Below are positions 11,163 to 40,655 of a DNA stretch of 64,000 bases, piece after piece. The position numbers and the translations under genes are program-made. Below the pieces are notes generated by a model. The model saw nothing but the letters and a program-made list of their open reading frames with translations, had not been told where the DNA came from and did no database searches. Numbering within the stretch: the first letter of the stretch is position 1; every line of letters starts with the position of its first letter. The DNA comes from Parvimonas micra (GTDB lineage Bacteria > Bacillota > Clostridia > Tissierellales > Peptoniphilaceae), in assembly GCF_037482165.1 (NCBI RefSeq), contig NZ_CP148048.1, positions 62,001 through 126,000 on the forward strand, in the 5' to 3' direction.

Positions 11163-11204
11163 GATACATTGACTCCTGAAATCTCATAGCATAAAAATTA
11201 ACAA

Positions 11205-11505
11205 TATTTGAAGTTTATTTACTGTTCACGTTTATCTGCTAATCGAAGTTATTTCTTTATACGTCATTTCGAGCGAAGTCGAGAAATCTCATAGTTTTGC
11301 TTGCAAACAAGCAAAACTAAATGTATCGAAGATACATACAATGTAAAAGACTTATTTATTAAAAGTCTTTAAGATAATTTCATATGAATTATATAAATAT
11401 TATAGTTTTTATACAAGTCCTTTACAGGACTTACTATTATTTGTAAACAAATAATAGTAGTGGGATCTTTCGACTTCGCTCAAGATGACGTGTTGGTGGC
11501 TTTTC
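11205..11505. repeat. Intergenic imperfect-palindromic repeat, copy A
   Basis: The element starts with a leader resembling GAAGTTTATTTACTGTTCAC, then TACGTCATTTCGAGCGAAG at 11260, and ends with CTTCGCTCAAGATGACGTG at about 11474-11492, an inverted copy. Inside are hairpins: 11293-11303 with 11308-11318 (11 bp), ATGTATC/GATACAT at 11321-11337, and two more near 11410-11460. Related copies lie near 28.1-28.5 and 40.2-40.6 kb. There is no coding capacity; it looks like a non-autonomous mobile or hairpin element. Confidence 0.8.
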
Positions 11506-28048: not shown

Positions 28049-28137
28049 TTGCTGTATAGAGTTTGAATTTTATTTATTAAAAAGTAATTACAAGGCGATA
28101 GAAATATCATCTTTTTCTATAATAAAATATGAGATTT

Positions 28138-28475
28138 CCAGAGTAATTGTATCTAAAGATACAATTACCCCGTCAGACCTACTTTTGTTTACAAGTAAAC
28201 AAAGTTAGGGCTAGATTCGCTCCATTCGTTTCACTCATTTCGGTCGAGATGACGTGTTAGAGGCGTTGTTTTGCTTGATATCGTCGCGTGAATTATATTA
28301 TTTTTTATGCAATTTTTAAATTCATTTTTAATAATATTTGAAGTTTATTTACTTTTAACGTTAAGCCCATAATCAAAGTTTATTCCTTATACGTCATCTT
28401 GAGCGAAACGTAGTGTAGTCGAAAGATCTCATACTTTTGCTTTAGCAAAAGTAAATGTATCGAAGATACTTAAAA
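28138..28475. repeat. Intergenic imperfect-palindromic repeats, copies B1 and B2
   Basis: B1 (about 28138-28260) contains the hairpin GAGTAATTGTATC / GATACAATTAC and ends TCGAGATGACGTGTTAG. B2 (about 28340-28475) repeats the leader GAAGTTTATTTACTTTTAAC, then TACGTCATCTTGAGCGAA, a hairpin of ACTTTTGCT / AGCAAAAGT and TGTATCGAAGATAC. The gap 28022-28605 is otherwise free of genes apart from a candidate promoter near 28540. Confidence 0.78.
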
Positions 28476-28605
28476 TATCTAAATCTCATAAGCTCACAAG
28501 CATATCAACTTAAATTGAATGAAATATATACTTATGATATAATCATAATAAAGTATTAGCAATGAAAATTTAGATATAATCTTCTTAAATAGAAGGGAGT
28601 AAAAA

Positions 28606-29392: not shown

Positions 29393-29995
29393 ATGAAAAA
29401 TGCAGTTATATACATACATGGGAAAGGCGGAAATTCTGTTGAAGCAGAACATTATAAAAAATTTTTTAGTGATGAATATAAAATTATTGGCTTTGATTAC
29501 AAATCTGAATTTCCTTGGGATGCCAAGGTAGAATTTTCAAAGTTTTTTGATTCCATAGTCTCTGAATATGATGATATTTACTTAATAGCAAATAGTTTGG
29601 GAGCTTATTATTCTATGCTTGCATTATCGGATAAAAAAATTAAAAAAGCTATGTTTATTTCTCCAATTGTAGATATGGAAAAACTAATTTTAAATATGAT
29701 GAAAATGTCTAATGTTTCAGAGGAAGAGTTATATAAAGAAAAAGAAATTGCAACATCCTTTAGTGAAACTTTGTCTTGGGAATATCTTACTTATGTTAGG
29801 AATAATCCAATAGAATGGAATGTACCAACAGATATTCTCTATGCAGAAAATGACCTTCTAACTTCTTTGGATACTATGACGAATTTTGCAAATAAAACTA
29901 ATTCTAGTCTTACTATTATGAAAAATGGAGAGCATTATTTTCACACTGAAGAACAAATGAATTTTTTGGATAATTGGTTTAGTGAATTTATATAG
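29393..29995 (+). CDS. Small alpha/beta hydrolase (YqiA/RBBP9-like)
   Basis: The 200-aa protein has YIHGKGGN near residue 8, the nucleophile elbow ANSLGAYY near 70, an Asp in ENDLLTS and a late His in GEHYFH. These features are typical of short esterase-like hydrolases. SD AGAGGTG precedes ATG 29393; the longer frame from 29342 runs through the LRR gene. A degraded copy of its 3' end occurs at 32582-32692. Confidence 0.85.
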   Translation: MKNAVIYIHGKGGNSVEAEHYKKFFSDEYKIIGFDYKSEFPWDAKVEFSKFFDSIVSEYDDIYLIANSLGAYYSMLALSDKKIKKAMFISPIVDMEKLILNMMKMSNVSEEELYKEKEIATSFSETLSWEYLTYVRNNPIEWNVPTDILYAENDLLTSLDTMTNFANKTNSSLTIMKNGEHYFHTEEQMNFLDNWFSEFI

Positions 29996-30456: not shown

Positions 30457-31050
30457 ATGACTAGAGAACGACTAACATCAAGAGAAAGAAAATTGAAAAT
30501 ACAAAATATTGCATTAGATGTTTTTACAAGAAAAGGATATAAAAACACAAGTATGTATGATTTAGTACAAGCTACTGGACTGTCTACAGGAGGTTTGTAT
30601 CACTACTATAAAAGTACAACTGAAATTCTATACGATTTGATGTTAAGAGGTTGTAAATATCGAGAAGACATTATTGAAAAAAAGATATGTGAAATTTCTA
30701 AGCCTTTAAGTGTAGAGTTATTAGCTGAAATTACTGTTGATAGGGCACTTTCTACTAATATATTTATTCCAATATATGTTATGTTTTTGCAGTCAATGAA
30801 GGAAGATGAAGACTTACAGGAACTTTATAAAAAATTACAGGACAGTTATATCAAAAATTTTAAACGAATGCTAGATGAATATGACTATGGAGAAATTTGT
30901 GAAGAATCTTTGAAATTACTCAATGATTTACTTAATACTATTATCTTGAGTTGTGAGACATTGGGAATTAGGGAACATTTAGTTTCACAACGTCAAGTTC
31001 TTGAGAAAATGATAATTGATGTTTTAATGATAAATAGAGAAGAGGTGTAA
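30457..31050 (+). CDS. TetR-family transcriptional regulator
   Basis: The 197-aa protein has a TetR helix-turn-helix: IQNIALDVFTRKGYKNTSMYDL, then ATGLSTGGLYHYYKST (about residues 12-55), and a variable helical ligand domain. It lies 4 bases before the MATE efflux gene and presumably represses both until a toxic compound binds. AAGGAGG precedes the ATG. Confidence 0.92.
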   Translation: MTRERLTSRERKLKIQNIALDVFTRKGYKNTSMYDLVQATGLSTGGLYHYYKSTTEILYDLMLRGCKYREDIIEKKICEISKPLSVELLAEITVDRALSTNIFIPIYVMFLQSMKEDEDLQELYKKLQDSYIKNFKRMLDEYDYGEICEESLKLLNDLLNTIILSCETLGIREHLVSQRQVLEKMIIDVLMINREEV

Positions 31051-31054
31051 TTAG

Positions 31055-32392
31055 ATGAATAAAGATAGTAAAGAGCTCTTAACAGCTAAACCGTTACAAA
31101 TATTAATTAAACTTTCATTACCGGCAATATTAGGGATGATTGTTATCGGCTTATATCCGCTAATGGATGGGATTTTTGCCGGCCAGATACTTGGAGAGAA
31201 AGCTATGACCGCTGTAGGAATTGCCACTCCGTTCACATATATCAATACGGGTATCGCAACTTTAATTGGGGTAGGTTCAGCGTCACTATTATCCAGAGCC
31301 ATTGGAGAAGGAAATCAAAAAATAATAGATAAAGTTATGGGAAATCTTTGTTTTTGGATTCTAACATTGTCAACAATTGTTACTGTTTTAGGGATCATAT
31401 TTTGCCAACAATTACTTAGTGTATTTGGTGCAAAAGGAGAACTTTTAAATCTTTCTACTCGTTATTTACGAATTATTTTTATAGGGTCTATTTTTGTAAA
31501 TTTCGCGCAGGCAGCAAATATGGTTATGCGTGGCGAGGGGTTGATGAAACGAGCAATGCTTATTATGGGAATTGGTGCAGGTATAAATATATTGTTGGAT
31601 CCGATTCTTATGATACTATTTAGAGAGCGTGGTATTGAAGGTGCTGCTGTCGCTACGATAACAGCACAATTTGTTCAGGCAATTTTTACTCTTTGGTATT
31701 TTAAGAAAAAAAGTAAAGTTGTAAAAATTGAGATGATTAGAAAAGAAGGGGATATAACCGGAGATATGTTTTCCGTAGGTGTTTCTGCTATGCTTATGCA
31801 GGTGTTAACTATTATTCAGCAGAGTTTTCTTTATAGTCAAGCTTTTCGTTATGGTGGAGAAACATCCGCAGCAATTATGGCGGCTATCTTAAGAATACAG
31901 GCTTTTTCATTCATTCCTCTTTGGGGAATGAGCCAAGGATTACAACCTGCTATTGGTGCCAATTTTGGAGCAGAGCAGTATGATAGGGTCAAAAAAATAT
32001 TCAATGTTTTCGCTATCAGTTCTATTATATTAGCTGCTTGTTTTTGGCTACCTTCAGAAATTTTTGCTAAACCAATTCTTGGATTATTTGGATTATCCGA
32101 TGAAACACTATTTTTAGCTATTCCGAATTTCCGCATAATGTACAGTATTTTCATTGCTTATGGGGTAATGATTATGACTATAACATTTTTTCAAGCGATT
32201 GGAGATGGTAAAACAGCCGGTATTTTAGTTATGTTAAGACAGATAATTTTGTTTATTCCAGCTGTAATTTTATTACCTCGTATGATTGGAGCACAGAGTC
32301 TTTGGTACGTTTTGCCAATAATTGATGGAGTCGTTGTGTTACTGGGAATTCAGAGATATTTTATGGCAGTAAAAAAAATGGAGAAAAAATAG
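31055..32392 (+). CDS. MATE-family multidrug efflux transporter
   Basis: The 445-aa protein has about twelve membrane helices. The N-terminal helix carries PAILGMIVIGLYPLMDGIFAG and the repeat half SVGVSAMLMQVL. MATE proteins export cationic drugs by Na+ or H+ antiport; the closest style is MepA. Codon use looks somewhat richer in G and C than the neighbours, which hints at transfer together with tetR. It is closed by a linker-type terminator. Confidence 0.92.
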   Translation: MNKDSKELLTAKPLQILIKLSLPAILGMIVIGLYPLMDGIFAGQILGEKAMTAVGIATPFTYINTGIATLIGVGSASLLSRAIGEGNQKIIDKVMGNLCFWILTLSTIVTVLGIIFCQQLLSVFGAKGELLNLSTRYLRIIFIGSIFVNFAQAANMVMRGEGLMKRAMLIMGIGAGINILLDPILMILFRERGIEGAAVATITAQFVQAIFTLWYFKKKSKVVKIEMIRKEGDITGDMFSVGVSAMLMQVLTIIQQSFLYSQAFRYGGETSAAIMAAILRIQAFSFIPLWGMSQGLQPAIGANFGAEQYDRVKKIFNVFAISSIILAACFWLPSEIFAKPILGLFGLSDETLFLAIPNFRIMYSIFIAYGVMIMTITFFQAIGDGKTAGILVMLRQIILFIPAVILLPRMIGAQSLWYVLPIIDGVVVLLGIQRYFMAVKKMEKK

Positions 32393-32581: not shown

Positions 32582-32692
32582 AAAACTAATTCGAGTATTA
32601 CTATTATGAAAAATGGAGAGCATTATTTTCGTACTTAAGAACAAATGAATTTCTTGGATAATTGGTTTAGTGAATTTATAAAAAGTGAGTAA
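32582..32692 (+). pseudogene. Fragment duplicating the 3' end of the small hydrolase gene
   Basis: Bases 32582-32680 match 29894-29992 over 99 bases with six substitutions. The reading frame is kept but has a nonsense codon TAA inside (GAA to TAA), and the last codons differ (FIKSE before the stop). It is the remnant of a paralogue on the far side of the tetR-MATE unit. Confidence 0.8.
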
Positions 32693-32783
32693 AATAATTT
32701 CACTAAAATAGATATTTTAAGCTGAAAATATGATATAATTATATATGCTATTAAAACATTGAATATAGAAAGAGGAAAATTTT

Positions 32784-33705: not shown

Positions 33706-33734
33706 AACAGATAGCAGAAAAGCTATCTTTTTTG
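33706..33734 (+). terminator. Terminator after the DUF421 gene
   Basis: AGATAGC / GCTATCT with a short A-rich loop, then six T. Confidence 0.87.
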
Positions 33735-33880
33735 TTTGTAAATTTATGAAATAATTAGTTATATTGAATTAAATAAACTACTATGGTATACTATCGATGA
33801 ATTAAGATATAGAAAATATTGATAATAATTCAAAAAAATTATATTTAAATAAAAAACAGTATTTATGAATGGAGAAAATT

Positions 33881-35068
33881 ATGAGCAAAGAGTTTTTACA
33901 AGAAATTTTAGAAGAAAAAATTGGAGAATCTGATGTTTTGGAATTTAAAGATTATTATTTTGAAAATGGAAAATTAAGCGAATTAAATCAGAAAAATTTA
34001 AATGATTTATTTAAAGAAATATGTTCGTTTGCGAATTATAATGGTGGGAAAATAATTCTAGGATTAAAAGAAGATGAAAAACATAATCCTTCTAAGTTTT
34101 CTGATGTGGGAGTTAATAAAGATAGATTTGAAACTTGGGAGCAATCTTTTAGAAATAAGATTTTGGTTAATACAATCCCTGCTCTTTATGGACTAAAATT
34201 AGAACATATTTCTATTGACGAAAATACAAATTGTATCATAATTGAAGTACCAAGAAGTGAATTGAGACCTCATGCATTTAATACAGGAAGCAATCACGAA
34301 TTTTATATTAGAAATGGTAATACTTGTGCTAAAATGAAATATAACGATTTAAAAAATAGTTTCAATGAATTTGCTTTTAAACAAGAACGAATAAAAAGGT
34401 TTATAGATGAAAGAATAGTTTTTATTCTTAATGGAAATTTAGAGGAAAGTTTAACTACTAACAGCTCTTTAGTATTGCATCTAATACCTGAGTGGTCATT
34501 AGATGAGTCTAATTTTCTAAACTTGAGTTCTTTACAATACAAAAAAAGTTTTACGGTTTTTAGTCCTCCGGATATTTTAGGAACTACTTTATATAATTCA
34601 GATGGTTTAATAAGGGTTTATGGGAATAATATTAGAAATATTCAGTCTTATACTCAATTATTCTCTAACTCTTGTATTGAATCAGTAGAAATTAGATTAT
34701 TAAATGACTATAATGATGGAACTATTTATAAGTGGAATGTATTAGAAAAATTTTTGGTAGAGAAAATACATGCATTTTTAATTGATTTAGAAAAAATCGA
34801 TATTTTTGGAGGAATATATATTACTGTTACATTACTAAATGTAAGAGATAAACAGGTATTATGTAACGAGTGGTGTGATAAATCAGAAAAGATATCTCAT
34901 AACATTGTAAAAACTCCAATATTGAAATGGACGACTGAACAAGACTTCCCAGAATTTCTATATCCAATTCTAACTTCTCTAGCTTATACTTGTGGATTAA
35001 ATCATTCATCTTATTATGATAAAGATGGGAACCCAATTAAAGAAAAGTTTGATTTTCTTCAAAATTAA
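33881..35068 (+). CDS. AlbA_2 (Schlafen-type) DNA-binding-domain protein
   Basis: The 395-aa protein has an N-terminal AlbA_2/Schlafen domain: VLEFKDYYFENGK near 20, ICSFANYNGGKIILGLKED near 45-65, and EVPRSELRPHAFN with FYIRNGNTCAKM near 125-150. The C-terminal 230 residues are not recognised and lack the usual HATPase or wHTH partner. AlbA_2 proteins occur in regulation and in phage defence. GGAG at 33871 favours the ATG at 33881 over 33869. A membrane-anchored gene follows, broken by an amber codon. Confidence 0.82.
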   Translation: MSKEFLQEILEEKIGESDVLEFKDYYFENGKLSELNQKNLNDLFKEICSFANYNGGKIILGLKEDEKHNPSKFSDVGVNKDRFETWEQSFRNKILVNTIPALYGLKLEHISIDENTNCIIIEVPRSELRPHAFNTGSNHEFYIRNGNTCAKMKYNDLKNSFNEFAFKQERIKRFIDERIVFILNGNLEESLTTNSSLVLHLIPEWSLDESNFLNLSSLQYKKSFTVFSPPDILGTTLYNSDGLIRVYGNNIRNIQSYTQLFSNSCIESVEIRLLNDYNDGTIYKWNVLEKFLVEKIHAFLIDLEKIDIFGGIYITVTLLNVRDKQVLCNEWCDKSEKISHNIVKTPILKWTTEQDFPEFLYPILTSLAYTCGLNHSSYYDKDGNPIKEKFDFLQN

Positions 35069-35123
35069 ATAATTTTTACAATTTTTTATATTACAATTCA
35101 AATTATTAAATGGAGATATTATT

Positions 35124-35765
35124 ATGAATGAAATAACACAAAAATTTGAATTTAAAGAGTAGATTACAACTATTATACCAATTTGTTCGTTTGTGTTTTC
35201 TATCTTATCATATTTTAGAACCGAAAGAATAAAGCGAGAAAATGAACAAAGGGCAAAAGAATTTGAACTTTATAAGGAAGCAAAAAGACAACAAGACGCA
35301 ATGATTACTAGTTTATTAATGAAACAAAGTACAAGAGCATCTGTTGTTCCATATTTTAACATTGTTTTAAGAGATGAAAGAATTATTGAAAGTAATGATA
35401 AAATAACTCTAGGAATAGGAGTTATTAATATAGGAAAAGAAAGTACCACAAATGTACAATTGGTACCTAAGATATCAGAACGGGGATTAAATGAATATTT
35501 TGATAGTGATAAAGGATATAAATATGGTATTTCTGAATATTTAAATAGATATTATGCAAGACCGGGAGAAGAAATAATTTTCTATATAAGAATTTTAAAA
35601 AAAGAAAGCATCTCTGATTTTCTTAATTTCAAAATAAAATATTATGACTTAATAGGAAATTGTTATATACAAGAATTTAGATTTGGATTTGATAATTATT
35701 TACTAAACGGATACTACTTAGATAATGCCTCATATGTTCCTAAATTGGTAAAAAATGATAAATAA
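35124..35765 (+). pseudogene. Membrane-anchored coiled-coil protein interrupted by an in-frame amber codon
   Basis: The frame from ATG 35124 (after GGAG) reads MNEITQKFEFKE, stops at TAG 35160-35162, and continues in the same frame to 35765. The continuation has a membrane helix (TTIIPICSFVFSILSYF), a charged coiled coil (RTERIKRENEQRAKEFELYKE, in pieces) and a beta-rich domain. A GTG at 35193 could restart translation inside the helix. It is probably a point-mutated partner of the AlbA_2 gene; suppression of TAG is possible. Confidence 0.65.
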
Positions 35766-35776
35766 TTACTAAAAAA

Positions 35777-35805
35777 CAAACCTACTCATTACGAGTAGGT
35801 TTTTA
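35777..35805. terminator. Bidirectional terminator between convergent genes
   Basis: AAACCTACTC / GAGTAGGTTT flanked by A and T runs; it serves both the membrane gene and the minus-strand methyltransferase. Confidence 0.88.
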
Positions 35806-40159: not shown

Positions 40160-40575
40160 TAGAATTTATTTACTGTTCATGTGAAGCCCTTAATCGAAGT
40201 TTTCTATTTATATGTCATCTCGACCGAAGCTGAGCAGAGCGAGACGGAGTGAATCTAGCCCTAACTTTTGTTGTTTATTCATAAACAACAAAAAGTAGGC
40301 CTGACACAAAGATAGTAATGAGATCTCTCCGCTTCATTCGTTTCACTCATTTCGGTCGAGATGACGTGTTGGGGGCGTCGACTAGTTTGGTGTTGTGACG
40401 TAAAATTTTTGCTATTCTAATTTTTACTTTTTGATGTTTATTTACTATTAACGTTAAGCTAATAGGTGAAGATTATTTTTTATACGTCATTTCGACTGTA
40501 GCGATAGCGGAATGGAGAAATCTCATATTTTTGCTTGTAAACAAGCAAAAATAAATGTATCGAAGATACATTCAA
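40160..40575. repeat. Intergenic imperfect-palindromic repeats, copies C1 and C2
   Basis: C1 (about 40160-40370): leader, TATGTCATCTCGACCGAAG, the hairpin TTTGTTGTTTAT/ATAAACAACAAA and the inverted end TCGGTCGAGATGACGTGTTGG. C2 (about 40433-40571): leader GATGTTTATTTACTATTAAC, TACGTCATTTCGACTG, the hairpin TTTTTGCTTG / CAAGCAAAAA and ATGTATCGAAGATACAT. They are related to the repeats at 11.2 and 28.2 kb. Confidence 0.8.
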
Positions 40576-40655
40576 TAATGGAGATCTCAACTATTGCTTG
40601 TTTATATTTCTGAAATAAATCTTAACGAAAGTATTAATTAACTTTTTATAGAATT

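What the first reader, a model, noticed from the sequence alone, without database searches (positions are those of the whole stretch)
33881..35765. AlbA_2/Schlafen gene paired with an amber-interrupted membrane coiled-coil gene
AlbA_2 proteins occur in regulatory and defence settings. Here the usual C-terminal module is replaced by about 230 unrecognised residues, and the neighbour is a membrane-anchored coiled-coil plus beta domain. The neighbour's frame is intact except for TAG at 35160-35162. The pair sits in the accessory region. A two-gene defence or signalling unit, inactivated or TAG-suppressed in this strain, is plausible.
Basis: inference. Interest (0 to 1): 0.55.

Follow-up and report, generated by a model that had tools for sequence, protein, structure and literature searches.

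The report
Stray mobile-element gene beside broken neighbour
A bacterial gene related to the animal antiviral Schlafen enzymes, usually carried on transferable DNA that also holds anti-phage genes, sits next to a broken membrane-protein gene; the two look like neighbours by accident, not a working pair.

Summary
In detail: an intact SLFN_AlbA_2 gene (33869/33881-35068) is followed by a membrane coiled-coil/beta frame (35124-35765) with one TAG at 35160-35162. The reading as a two-gene unit is not supported. In 130 genomes of the bacterial family, full-length AlbA_2 relatives occur in 7 and the second gene in 3; they coincide only here. All 7 other full-length AlbA_2 loci lie directly beside MobC and a MobA relaxase, near a conserved oriT-like block; three of these elements, screened, carry Lamassu, restriction-modification, TIR/caspase or Tmn genes. 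The second gene belongs to another cassette: in a sister species it stands intact at the same site behind a KilA-N gene. Homology breaks at 33742 and resumes at about 35225, inside the second gene. Since that exchange it has changed without visible constraint. Best mechanism: the AlbA_2 protein is a Schlafen/SAMD9-type RNase left behind by a mobilizable element. Fold and aligned acidic residues support this; activity is inferred. The 'unrecognised' C-terminal module is an unnamed but conserved domain found in bacteria, archaea and phage contigs. TAG is an ordinary stop here (19 of 59 long ORFs), so suppression is unlikely.

The parts
33869..35068 (+). SLFN_AlbA_2 protein gene, intact (399 aa; likely start at ATG 33881, 395 aa)
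   Evidence: full-length relatives at 41-49% identity
33926..34336 (+). AlbA_2 (Schlafen-type) domain, residues 16-152
   Evidence: Pfam PF04326 E 1.3e-15; fold like SAMD9 tRNase domain, Z 11.9, rmsd 3.5 over 153, and SLFN12, Z 10.0, rmsd 2.8 over 120
33926..33928 (+). codon of E16, aligned with rSLFN13 E205
   Evidence: HMMER alignment to 5yd0; catalytic role of E205 from PMC5862951 (passages)
33941..33943 (+). codon of E21, aligned with rSLFN13 E210
   Evidence: invariant in A5, E or D in A6
34070..34072 (+). codon of E64, at the place of rSLFN13 D248
   Evidence: invariant E in A5; E in most, A in two of the 8 phage-contig relatives
34376..35065 (+). unnamed C-terminal alpha/beta domain, residues 166-395
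   Evidence: conserved along its length; model pLDDT 82.9 overall; only weak fold matches (Z about 6)
33709..33728 (+). terminator-like hairpin after yetF; left edge of the exchanged cassette lies just behind it (homology to G004 ends at 33742)
35112..35115 (+). ribosome-binding-site-like GGAG before the second gene; this stretch and the start are shared with the G004 copy
35124..35765 (+). second gene, membrane/coiled-coil/beta protein, broken by TAG at codon 13
   Evidence: relatives G004 and G028
35160..35162 (+). in-frame TAG
   Evidence: intact copies exist in G004 and G028
35225..35236 (+). junction: near-identity with the G004 copy begins here, inside the second gene
   Evidence: blastn, alignment, exact edge
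35778..35802 (.). terminator-like hairpin reading both ways between the second gene and the convergent methyltransferase gene

Best explanation
Two unrelated cargo genes lie side by side after recombination. Gene 1 encodes a Schlafen/SAMD9-type AlbA_2 protein, most likely a metal-dependent RNase acting on tRNA or rRNA, with its own C-terminal control domain. In its close relatives the gene travels on mobilizable elements, beside the oriT-like block, MobC and the MobA relaxase, together with anti-phage cargo; here it is a stray copy without that machinery. Gene 2 belongs to another cassette that also moves between species; an exchange inside gene 2 brought gene 1 and a foreign N-terminus up to an old C-terminal part, and gene 2 is now broken by TAG. 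Shown by sequence: the family, the absence of the pair elsewhere, the linkage to mobilization genes, the exchange and the stop. Inferred: RNase activity, its role in defence or element competition, and loss of gene 2 function.
For: Pair not recurrent: AlbA_2 full-length profile in 7 of 130 family genomes, second gene in 3 of 130, both only in the window's genome; no second-gene profile match among 492 neighbour ORFs of 94 other AlbA_2 genes. Mobilization linkage: 7 of 7 other full-length AlbA_2 loci (6 genomes) have MobC and MobA directly downstream, with a conserved non-coding block between or upstream. Cargo behind the relaxase in the three elements screened: LmuA/LmuB with a type II R-M system (L034), type IIG with TIR and caspase genes (L052), Tmn (L035). 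RNase: best sequence matches in PDB are CbCash and Schlafens; fold Z 11.9 to the SAMD9 tRNase domain and 9-10 to SLFN11/12/13/14; E16, E21, E64 fall on rSLFN13 E205, E210, D248, whose mutation removes or lowers cleavage. Exchange and decay: homology break at 33742 and resumption at 35225; the shared 525 nt differ at 6 sites, 1 synonymous and 5 not (dS 0.010, dN 0.012), while yetF and the methyltransferase beside them have dS 0.19-0.20 and dN 0.010.
Against: The window shows no oriT-like block or Mob genes, so its own copy is not shown to have come on such an element. The third acidic residue is E, not D, and is missing in two of eight phage-contig relatives; the E-x4-E-x-K motif may also serve non-nuclease AlbA_2 proteins. 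The window protein matches no PADLOC model at E <= 1. AlbA_2 is rare beside this relaxase: 1 of 30 top-scoring MobA loci, with MobA in 78 of 130 genomes. The neutral-looking changes in gene 2 rest on 6 differences. In G022 a distant relative of gene 2 does lie about 1.8 kb behind a broken AlbA_2 gene of another type (L037).
Confidence: 0.7

Rival explanations
1. A modular two-gene system: the membrane coiled-coil/beta protein is a fixed sensor or anchor, and the gene before it (AlbA_2 here, KilA-N plus a 182-aa protein in the sister species) is a swappable effector; the first membrane segment is exchanged with the effector.
For: Same chromosomal site, same order and shared ribosome-binding site and start in G000 and G004. 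The exchanged piece includes the membrane segment, as co-adaptation would predict. The KilA-N gene matches PADLOC candidate PDC-S22, E 5.5e-106. G022 has a broken AlbA_2 gene and a distant gene-2 relative about 1.8 kb apart.
Against: The window copy is broken; the A. porci copy stands in a conjugative element with no ORF of 60 aa or more in the kilobase before it; none of 94 other AlbA_2 genes has a gene-2 relative within three ORFs.
Confidence: 0.12
2. A functional anti-phage pair in which the TAG is read through or suppressed, or translation restarts downstream.
For: The frame behind the TAG is intact for 200 codons.
Against: TAG ends 19 of 59 long ORFs in the window, so general suppression would be costly. 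The next GTG (35193) lies inside the membrane segment and no Shine-Dalgarno sequence is visible before it. Changes since the exchange look neutral.
Confidence: 0.05
3. The AlbA_2 protein is not a nuclease but a DNA-binding regulator (as the annotation 'ATP-binding protein' and the phrase 'DNA-binding domain' suggest), controlling mobilization or cargo genes.
For: PF04326 is described as a DNA-binding domain in pAgo work (PMC6299218 passages). The gene is transcribed toward the oriT-like block and MobC in its relatives.
Against: No HATPase or winged-helix Pfam domain in it or in 8 relatives; closest folds include an RNase domain (SAMD9) and Schlafen nucleases, with the acidic residues kept. Most loci of this relaxase work without it.
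Confidence: 0.25
4. The TAG is an assembly or sequencing error and gene 2 is intact.
For: A single codon; the rest of the frame is open. No reads were available.
Against: The genome is one contig, 99.41% complete. Would not rescue the pair, which is absent elsewhere.
Confidence: 0.1

Closest known systems
Schlafen N-terminal nuclease core (SLFN11/12/13/14; rSLFN13 5yd0)
   Same: AlbA_2 fold, Z 9-10 over about 120 residues; E16/E21/E64 on E205/E210/D248
   Different: Only one AlbA_2 domain is found by Pfam, where SLFN13-N is a pseudo-dimer (PMC5862951 abstract in the listing); the rest is an unrelated C-terminal domain; third residue is E
SAMD9 tRNase domain (9o0d, 7ksp)
   Same: Best-covered fold match in the PDB, Z 11.8-11.9 over 153-170 residues
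   Different: SAMD9 is a large animal multidomain protein; identity 13-15%
CbCash (PDB 9ylu, 9ylv, 9ylx)
   Same: Best sequence match among solved structures, E 7e-10 over the AlbA_2 domain
   Different: 297 aa; the C-terminal domain does not align. I do not know what 'Cash' stands for; one search found no paper
Bacterial Schlafen RNases linked to BREX and anti-phage defence
   [quoted passage not shown] the preprint itself was not readable)
   [quoted passage not shown] this one does not
Integrative and mobilizable elements with MobC/NikA-like protein and MobA-type relaxase
   Same: All 7 other full-length AlbA_2 loci lie in this module
   Different: The window has no such module beside its copy
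PADLOC PDC-S22 (KilA-N candidate)
   Same: Stands before gene 2 at the same site in G004
   Different: Absent from the window; a candidate only

Membership tests
Pfam SLFN_AlbA_2 (PF04326) | Score above the curated cut-off | tested here: met
   58.4 bits against 25.3; 9 of 9 members of A6 match
Schlafen-type endoribonuclease | Two essential glutamates at the place of rSLFN13 E205 and E210 | tested here: met
   E16 and E21 by HMMER alignment; invariant in 7 of 7 family members
Schlafen-type endoribonuclease | Third acidic residue at the place of D248 | tested here: inconclusive
   E64 in all 7 of A5, but A in 2 of 8 phage-contig relatives
Schlafen-type endoribonuclease | Pseudo-dimer of two lobes, active site in the second | tested here: inconclusive
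   Pfam finds one AlbA_2 stretch; the C-terminal half gives only weak fold matches
Schlafen-type endoribonuclease | Cleavage of tRNA or rRNA | not testable with these tools
   needs protein
BREX-linked Schlafen RNase with histidine kinase and wHTH | C-terminal kinase-like and wHTH domains | tested here: not met
   no such Pfam match in any of 9 members
Known or candidate anti-phage system in PADLOC 2.0.0 | Match of the protein to a model | tested here: not met
   no match for AlbA_2 protein or gene 2 at E <= 1; relatives: 4 of 9 members of A6 match PDC-S50, best E 4.8e-8
Conserved two-gene unit AlbA_2 + gene 2 | Both genes adjacent in other genomes | tested here: not met
   1 of 130 family genomes, the own one; 0 of 94 other AlbA_2 genes
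Cargo of a MobC/MobA mobilizable element | MobC and relaxase beside the gene | tested here: not met
   window: none; relatives: 7 of 7
Suppressed (read-through) gene | Organism-wide reading of TAG as a residue | tested here: not met
   TAG ends 19 of 59 long ORFs; suppressor tRNA of the whole genome not searched

The most novel reading that the evidence does not exclude
A single-domain Schlafen-type RNase with a new C-terminal control domain is carried beside the transfer origin of defence-laden mobilizable elements, on the side opposite MobC and the relaxase, and acts on entry into a new cell or against rival elements and phages; the window holds a captured chromosomal copy. In animals the same fold is an antiviral tRNase.
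Probability: 0.15. Interest if true: 0.6.

Novelty: new member of a known kind. Interest (0 to 1): 0.3.

Why it matters
It turns a supposed two-gene defence unit into something more ordinary: a mobile cargo gene and a broken neighbour, joined by recombination. The part with value is the link between a Schlafen-type protein, an oriT-like block, MobC/MobA and known defence genes; no paper in the library holds both 'Schlafen' and 'relaxase'. If the protein is a tRNase, mobilizable elements carry the bacterial counterpart of an animal antiviral enzyme next to their transfer origin, which can be tested in laboratory strains.

Tried and rejected
Conserved pair: rejected. Phage origin: gene 2 and the AlbA_2 protein have no match in phage records by tblastn; the profile of the AlbA_2 protein finds 11 loci in viral contigs, the single protein none, gene 2 none. 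Plasmids: gene 2 none, AlbA_2 in 6 records; no MobC or relaxase is annotated beside it in the five annotated ones, the sixth has no annotation. Class and phylum searches with the narrow profile: 3 of 391 and 3 of 398 genomes, own included, so the narrow subfamily is rare. Fold of the C-terminal domain: AdoMetDC/spermine-synthase-like rows at Z about 6 and weak Foldseek rows for RnlA and TBP are below the level that the tool calls trustworthy; not used. That CbCash is missing from the fold rows proves nothing. Gene 2 fold: model too weak, Foldseek rows to Ig-like domains at E >= 0.02, not used. Promoter scan: 16 found against 18.0 expected, no information. Viral fold library: one clear row, a Catovirus 'Divergent AAA domain' protein. 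The talC row was computed in a shifted frame and is dropped. One search failed by a script error and was repeated. One of the 8 other matches (G027:C1:941492) aligns only over the AlbA_2 domain and has no MobC beside it; it is left out of '7 of 7 full-length'. The neighbour survey uses a crude ORF caller, three ORFs to each side; the G022 case lies just outside that reach. The 97 places were transcribed by me from the list; 3 had no ORF of 55 aa or more at the place. The genus is not named by any search; one family member is Anaerococcus porci, and Parvimonas is only my guess.

Full report
What is there. The window is part of a 1.55-Mb single-contig genome. At 33869-35068 lies an intact ORF whose residues 16-152 (counted from ATG 33881) match Pfam SLFN_AlbA_2. 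After 55 bases follows a second frame, 35124-35765, with a good ribosome-binding site, a TAG at codon 13 and an otherwise open frame.

Is it a pair? In 61 relatives the AlbA_2 protein matched 6 genomes and gene 2 matched 4, own included. With profiles over 130 genomes of the family, the AlbA_2 protein is in 7 and gene 2 in 3 (own, G004, G028); only the own genome has both. I then took 97 other SLFN_AlbA_2 places of the family (61 of 130 genomes have one). Of these, 94 had an ORF; among 492 ORFs within three on each side none matches the profile of gene 2 at E <= 10. One near miss: in G022 a distant gene-2 relative lies about 1.8 kb behind a broken AlbA_2 gene of another type. So the pair is not a conserved unit in what could be searched.

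Where AlbA_2 belongs. Every other full-length relative in the family (7 loci in 6 genomes; one truncated by a contig end) has MobC and a MobA relaxase directly downstream. Between them, or before MobC where AlbA_2 is absent, lies a conserved non-coding block with inverted repeats, oriT-like in place and form; oriT function is inferred. Three of these elements were screened for cargo behind the relaxase: LmuA and LmuB of Lamassu with a type II R-M pair (L034), a type IIG enzyme with TIR and caspase genes (L052), and Tmn (L035). The relaxase itself is common (78 of 130 genomes) and mostly has no AlbA_2 beside it (1 of 30 top loci), so AlbA_2 is optional cargo. The window copy has neither block nor Mob genes beside it; the own genome keeps a decayed relaxase elsewhere. 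More distant full-length relatives lie on plasmids of Burkholderia, Paraburkholderia, Rhizobium and Haloplanus, with a shorter match in Rubrobacter and a partial one in Micrococcus, and on phage contigs. The 'unrecognised' C-terminal residues are therefore a widespread, unnamed domain.

Where gene 2 belongs. In G004, a species 95-96% identical at the DNA level around this site, gene 2 is intact at the same place, but behind a KilA-N gene (PADLOC PDC-S22) and a 182-aa gene. Homology between the two genomes stops at 33742, just behind the yetF terminator, and resumes at about 35225, inside gene 2. The shared 525 nt differ at 6 sites (1 synonymous, 5 not), although the genes on either side differ with dS 0.19-0.20. 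So this part was exchanged recently between the species, and its changes since then look unconstrained; the numbers are small. In Anaerococcus porci a gene-2 relative lies alone in a conjugative element. G002 and G005 lack both genes at this site.

How it most likely works. The AlbA_2 model is good (pLDDT 82.9). Its N-terminal domain resembles DIP2311 (Z 12.5), the SAMD9 tRNase domain (Z 11.9, rmsd 3.5 over 153) and Schlafens (Z 9-10); by sequence the best solved relatives are CbCash and Schlafens. E16, E21 and E64 fall on E205, E210 and D248 of rat SLFN13, of which the first two are essential for cleavage (PMC5862951, passages). I infer a tRNA- or rRNA-directed RNase with a separate C-terminal control domain, used in defence or element competition. 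A 2026 survey reports Schlafen RNases linked to BREX and cites a preprint on bacterial Schlafens in anti-phage defence (PMC12839542, passages; preprint not read). The fold alone does not prove activity, and the third acidic residue varies.

The stop codon. TAG ends 19 of 59 long ORFs in the window, so it is an ordinary stop. Downstream starts would cut the membrane segment. Gene 2 is most likely dead here. A sequencing error cannot be excluded without reads.

Verdict.

Noticed in passing
window 28079-28330 (L032:9575-10877; L161): In G002 (L032) and G005 (L161) a different AlbA_2-like gene (249 and 276 aa) is followed 53 bases later by a membrane protein with at least two predicted helices (166 and 238 aa). 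This AlbA_2-membrane pair recurs in two species and may be a better candidate unit than the one in the window.
   Followed up: partly
window 11204-11468, 28121-28478, 40312-40577: Similar intergenic repeats of about 100-280 bases at several places, seen as cross-matches in blastn with sister genomes.
   Followed up: no
window 29894-29992 and 32582-32711: A direct repeat flanks the TetR and MATE genes (30457-32392); in G002 the block is missing and one repeat copy remains, which suggests gain or loss by recombination between repeats.
   Followed up: no
L082 (G000:C1:1228000-1238000): The own genome has a MobC gene and a relaxase broken by stops, with the oriT-like block before MobC but no AlbA_2.
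   Followed up: partly
L152 (G000:C1:800500-807500): A short AlbA_2 remnant (112 aa) next to a transposase-like fragment; a third AlbA_2 gene (502 aa) lies at G000:C1:346460.
   Followed up: no
L037:7526-10320: In G022 an AlbA_2 gene split over two ORFs and, 1.8 kb on, a membrane coiled-coil protein distantly like gene 2.
   Followed up: partly
L033:9175-14593: In G005 the neighbourhood of this site holds large repeat-rich surface-protein-like genes with LPKTG-type ends instead of the cassette.
   Followed up: no
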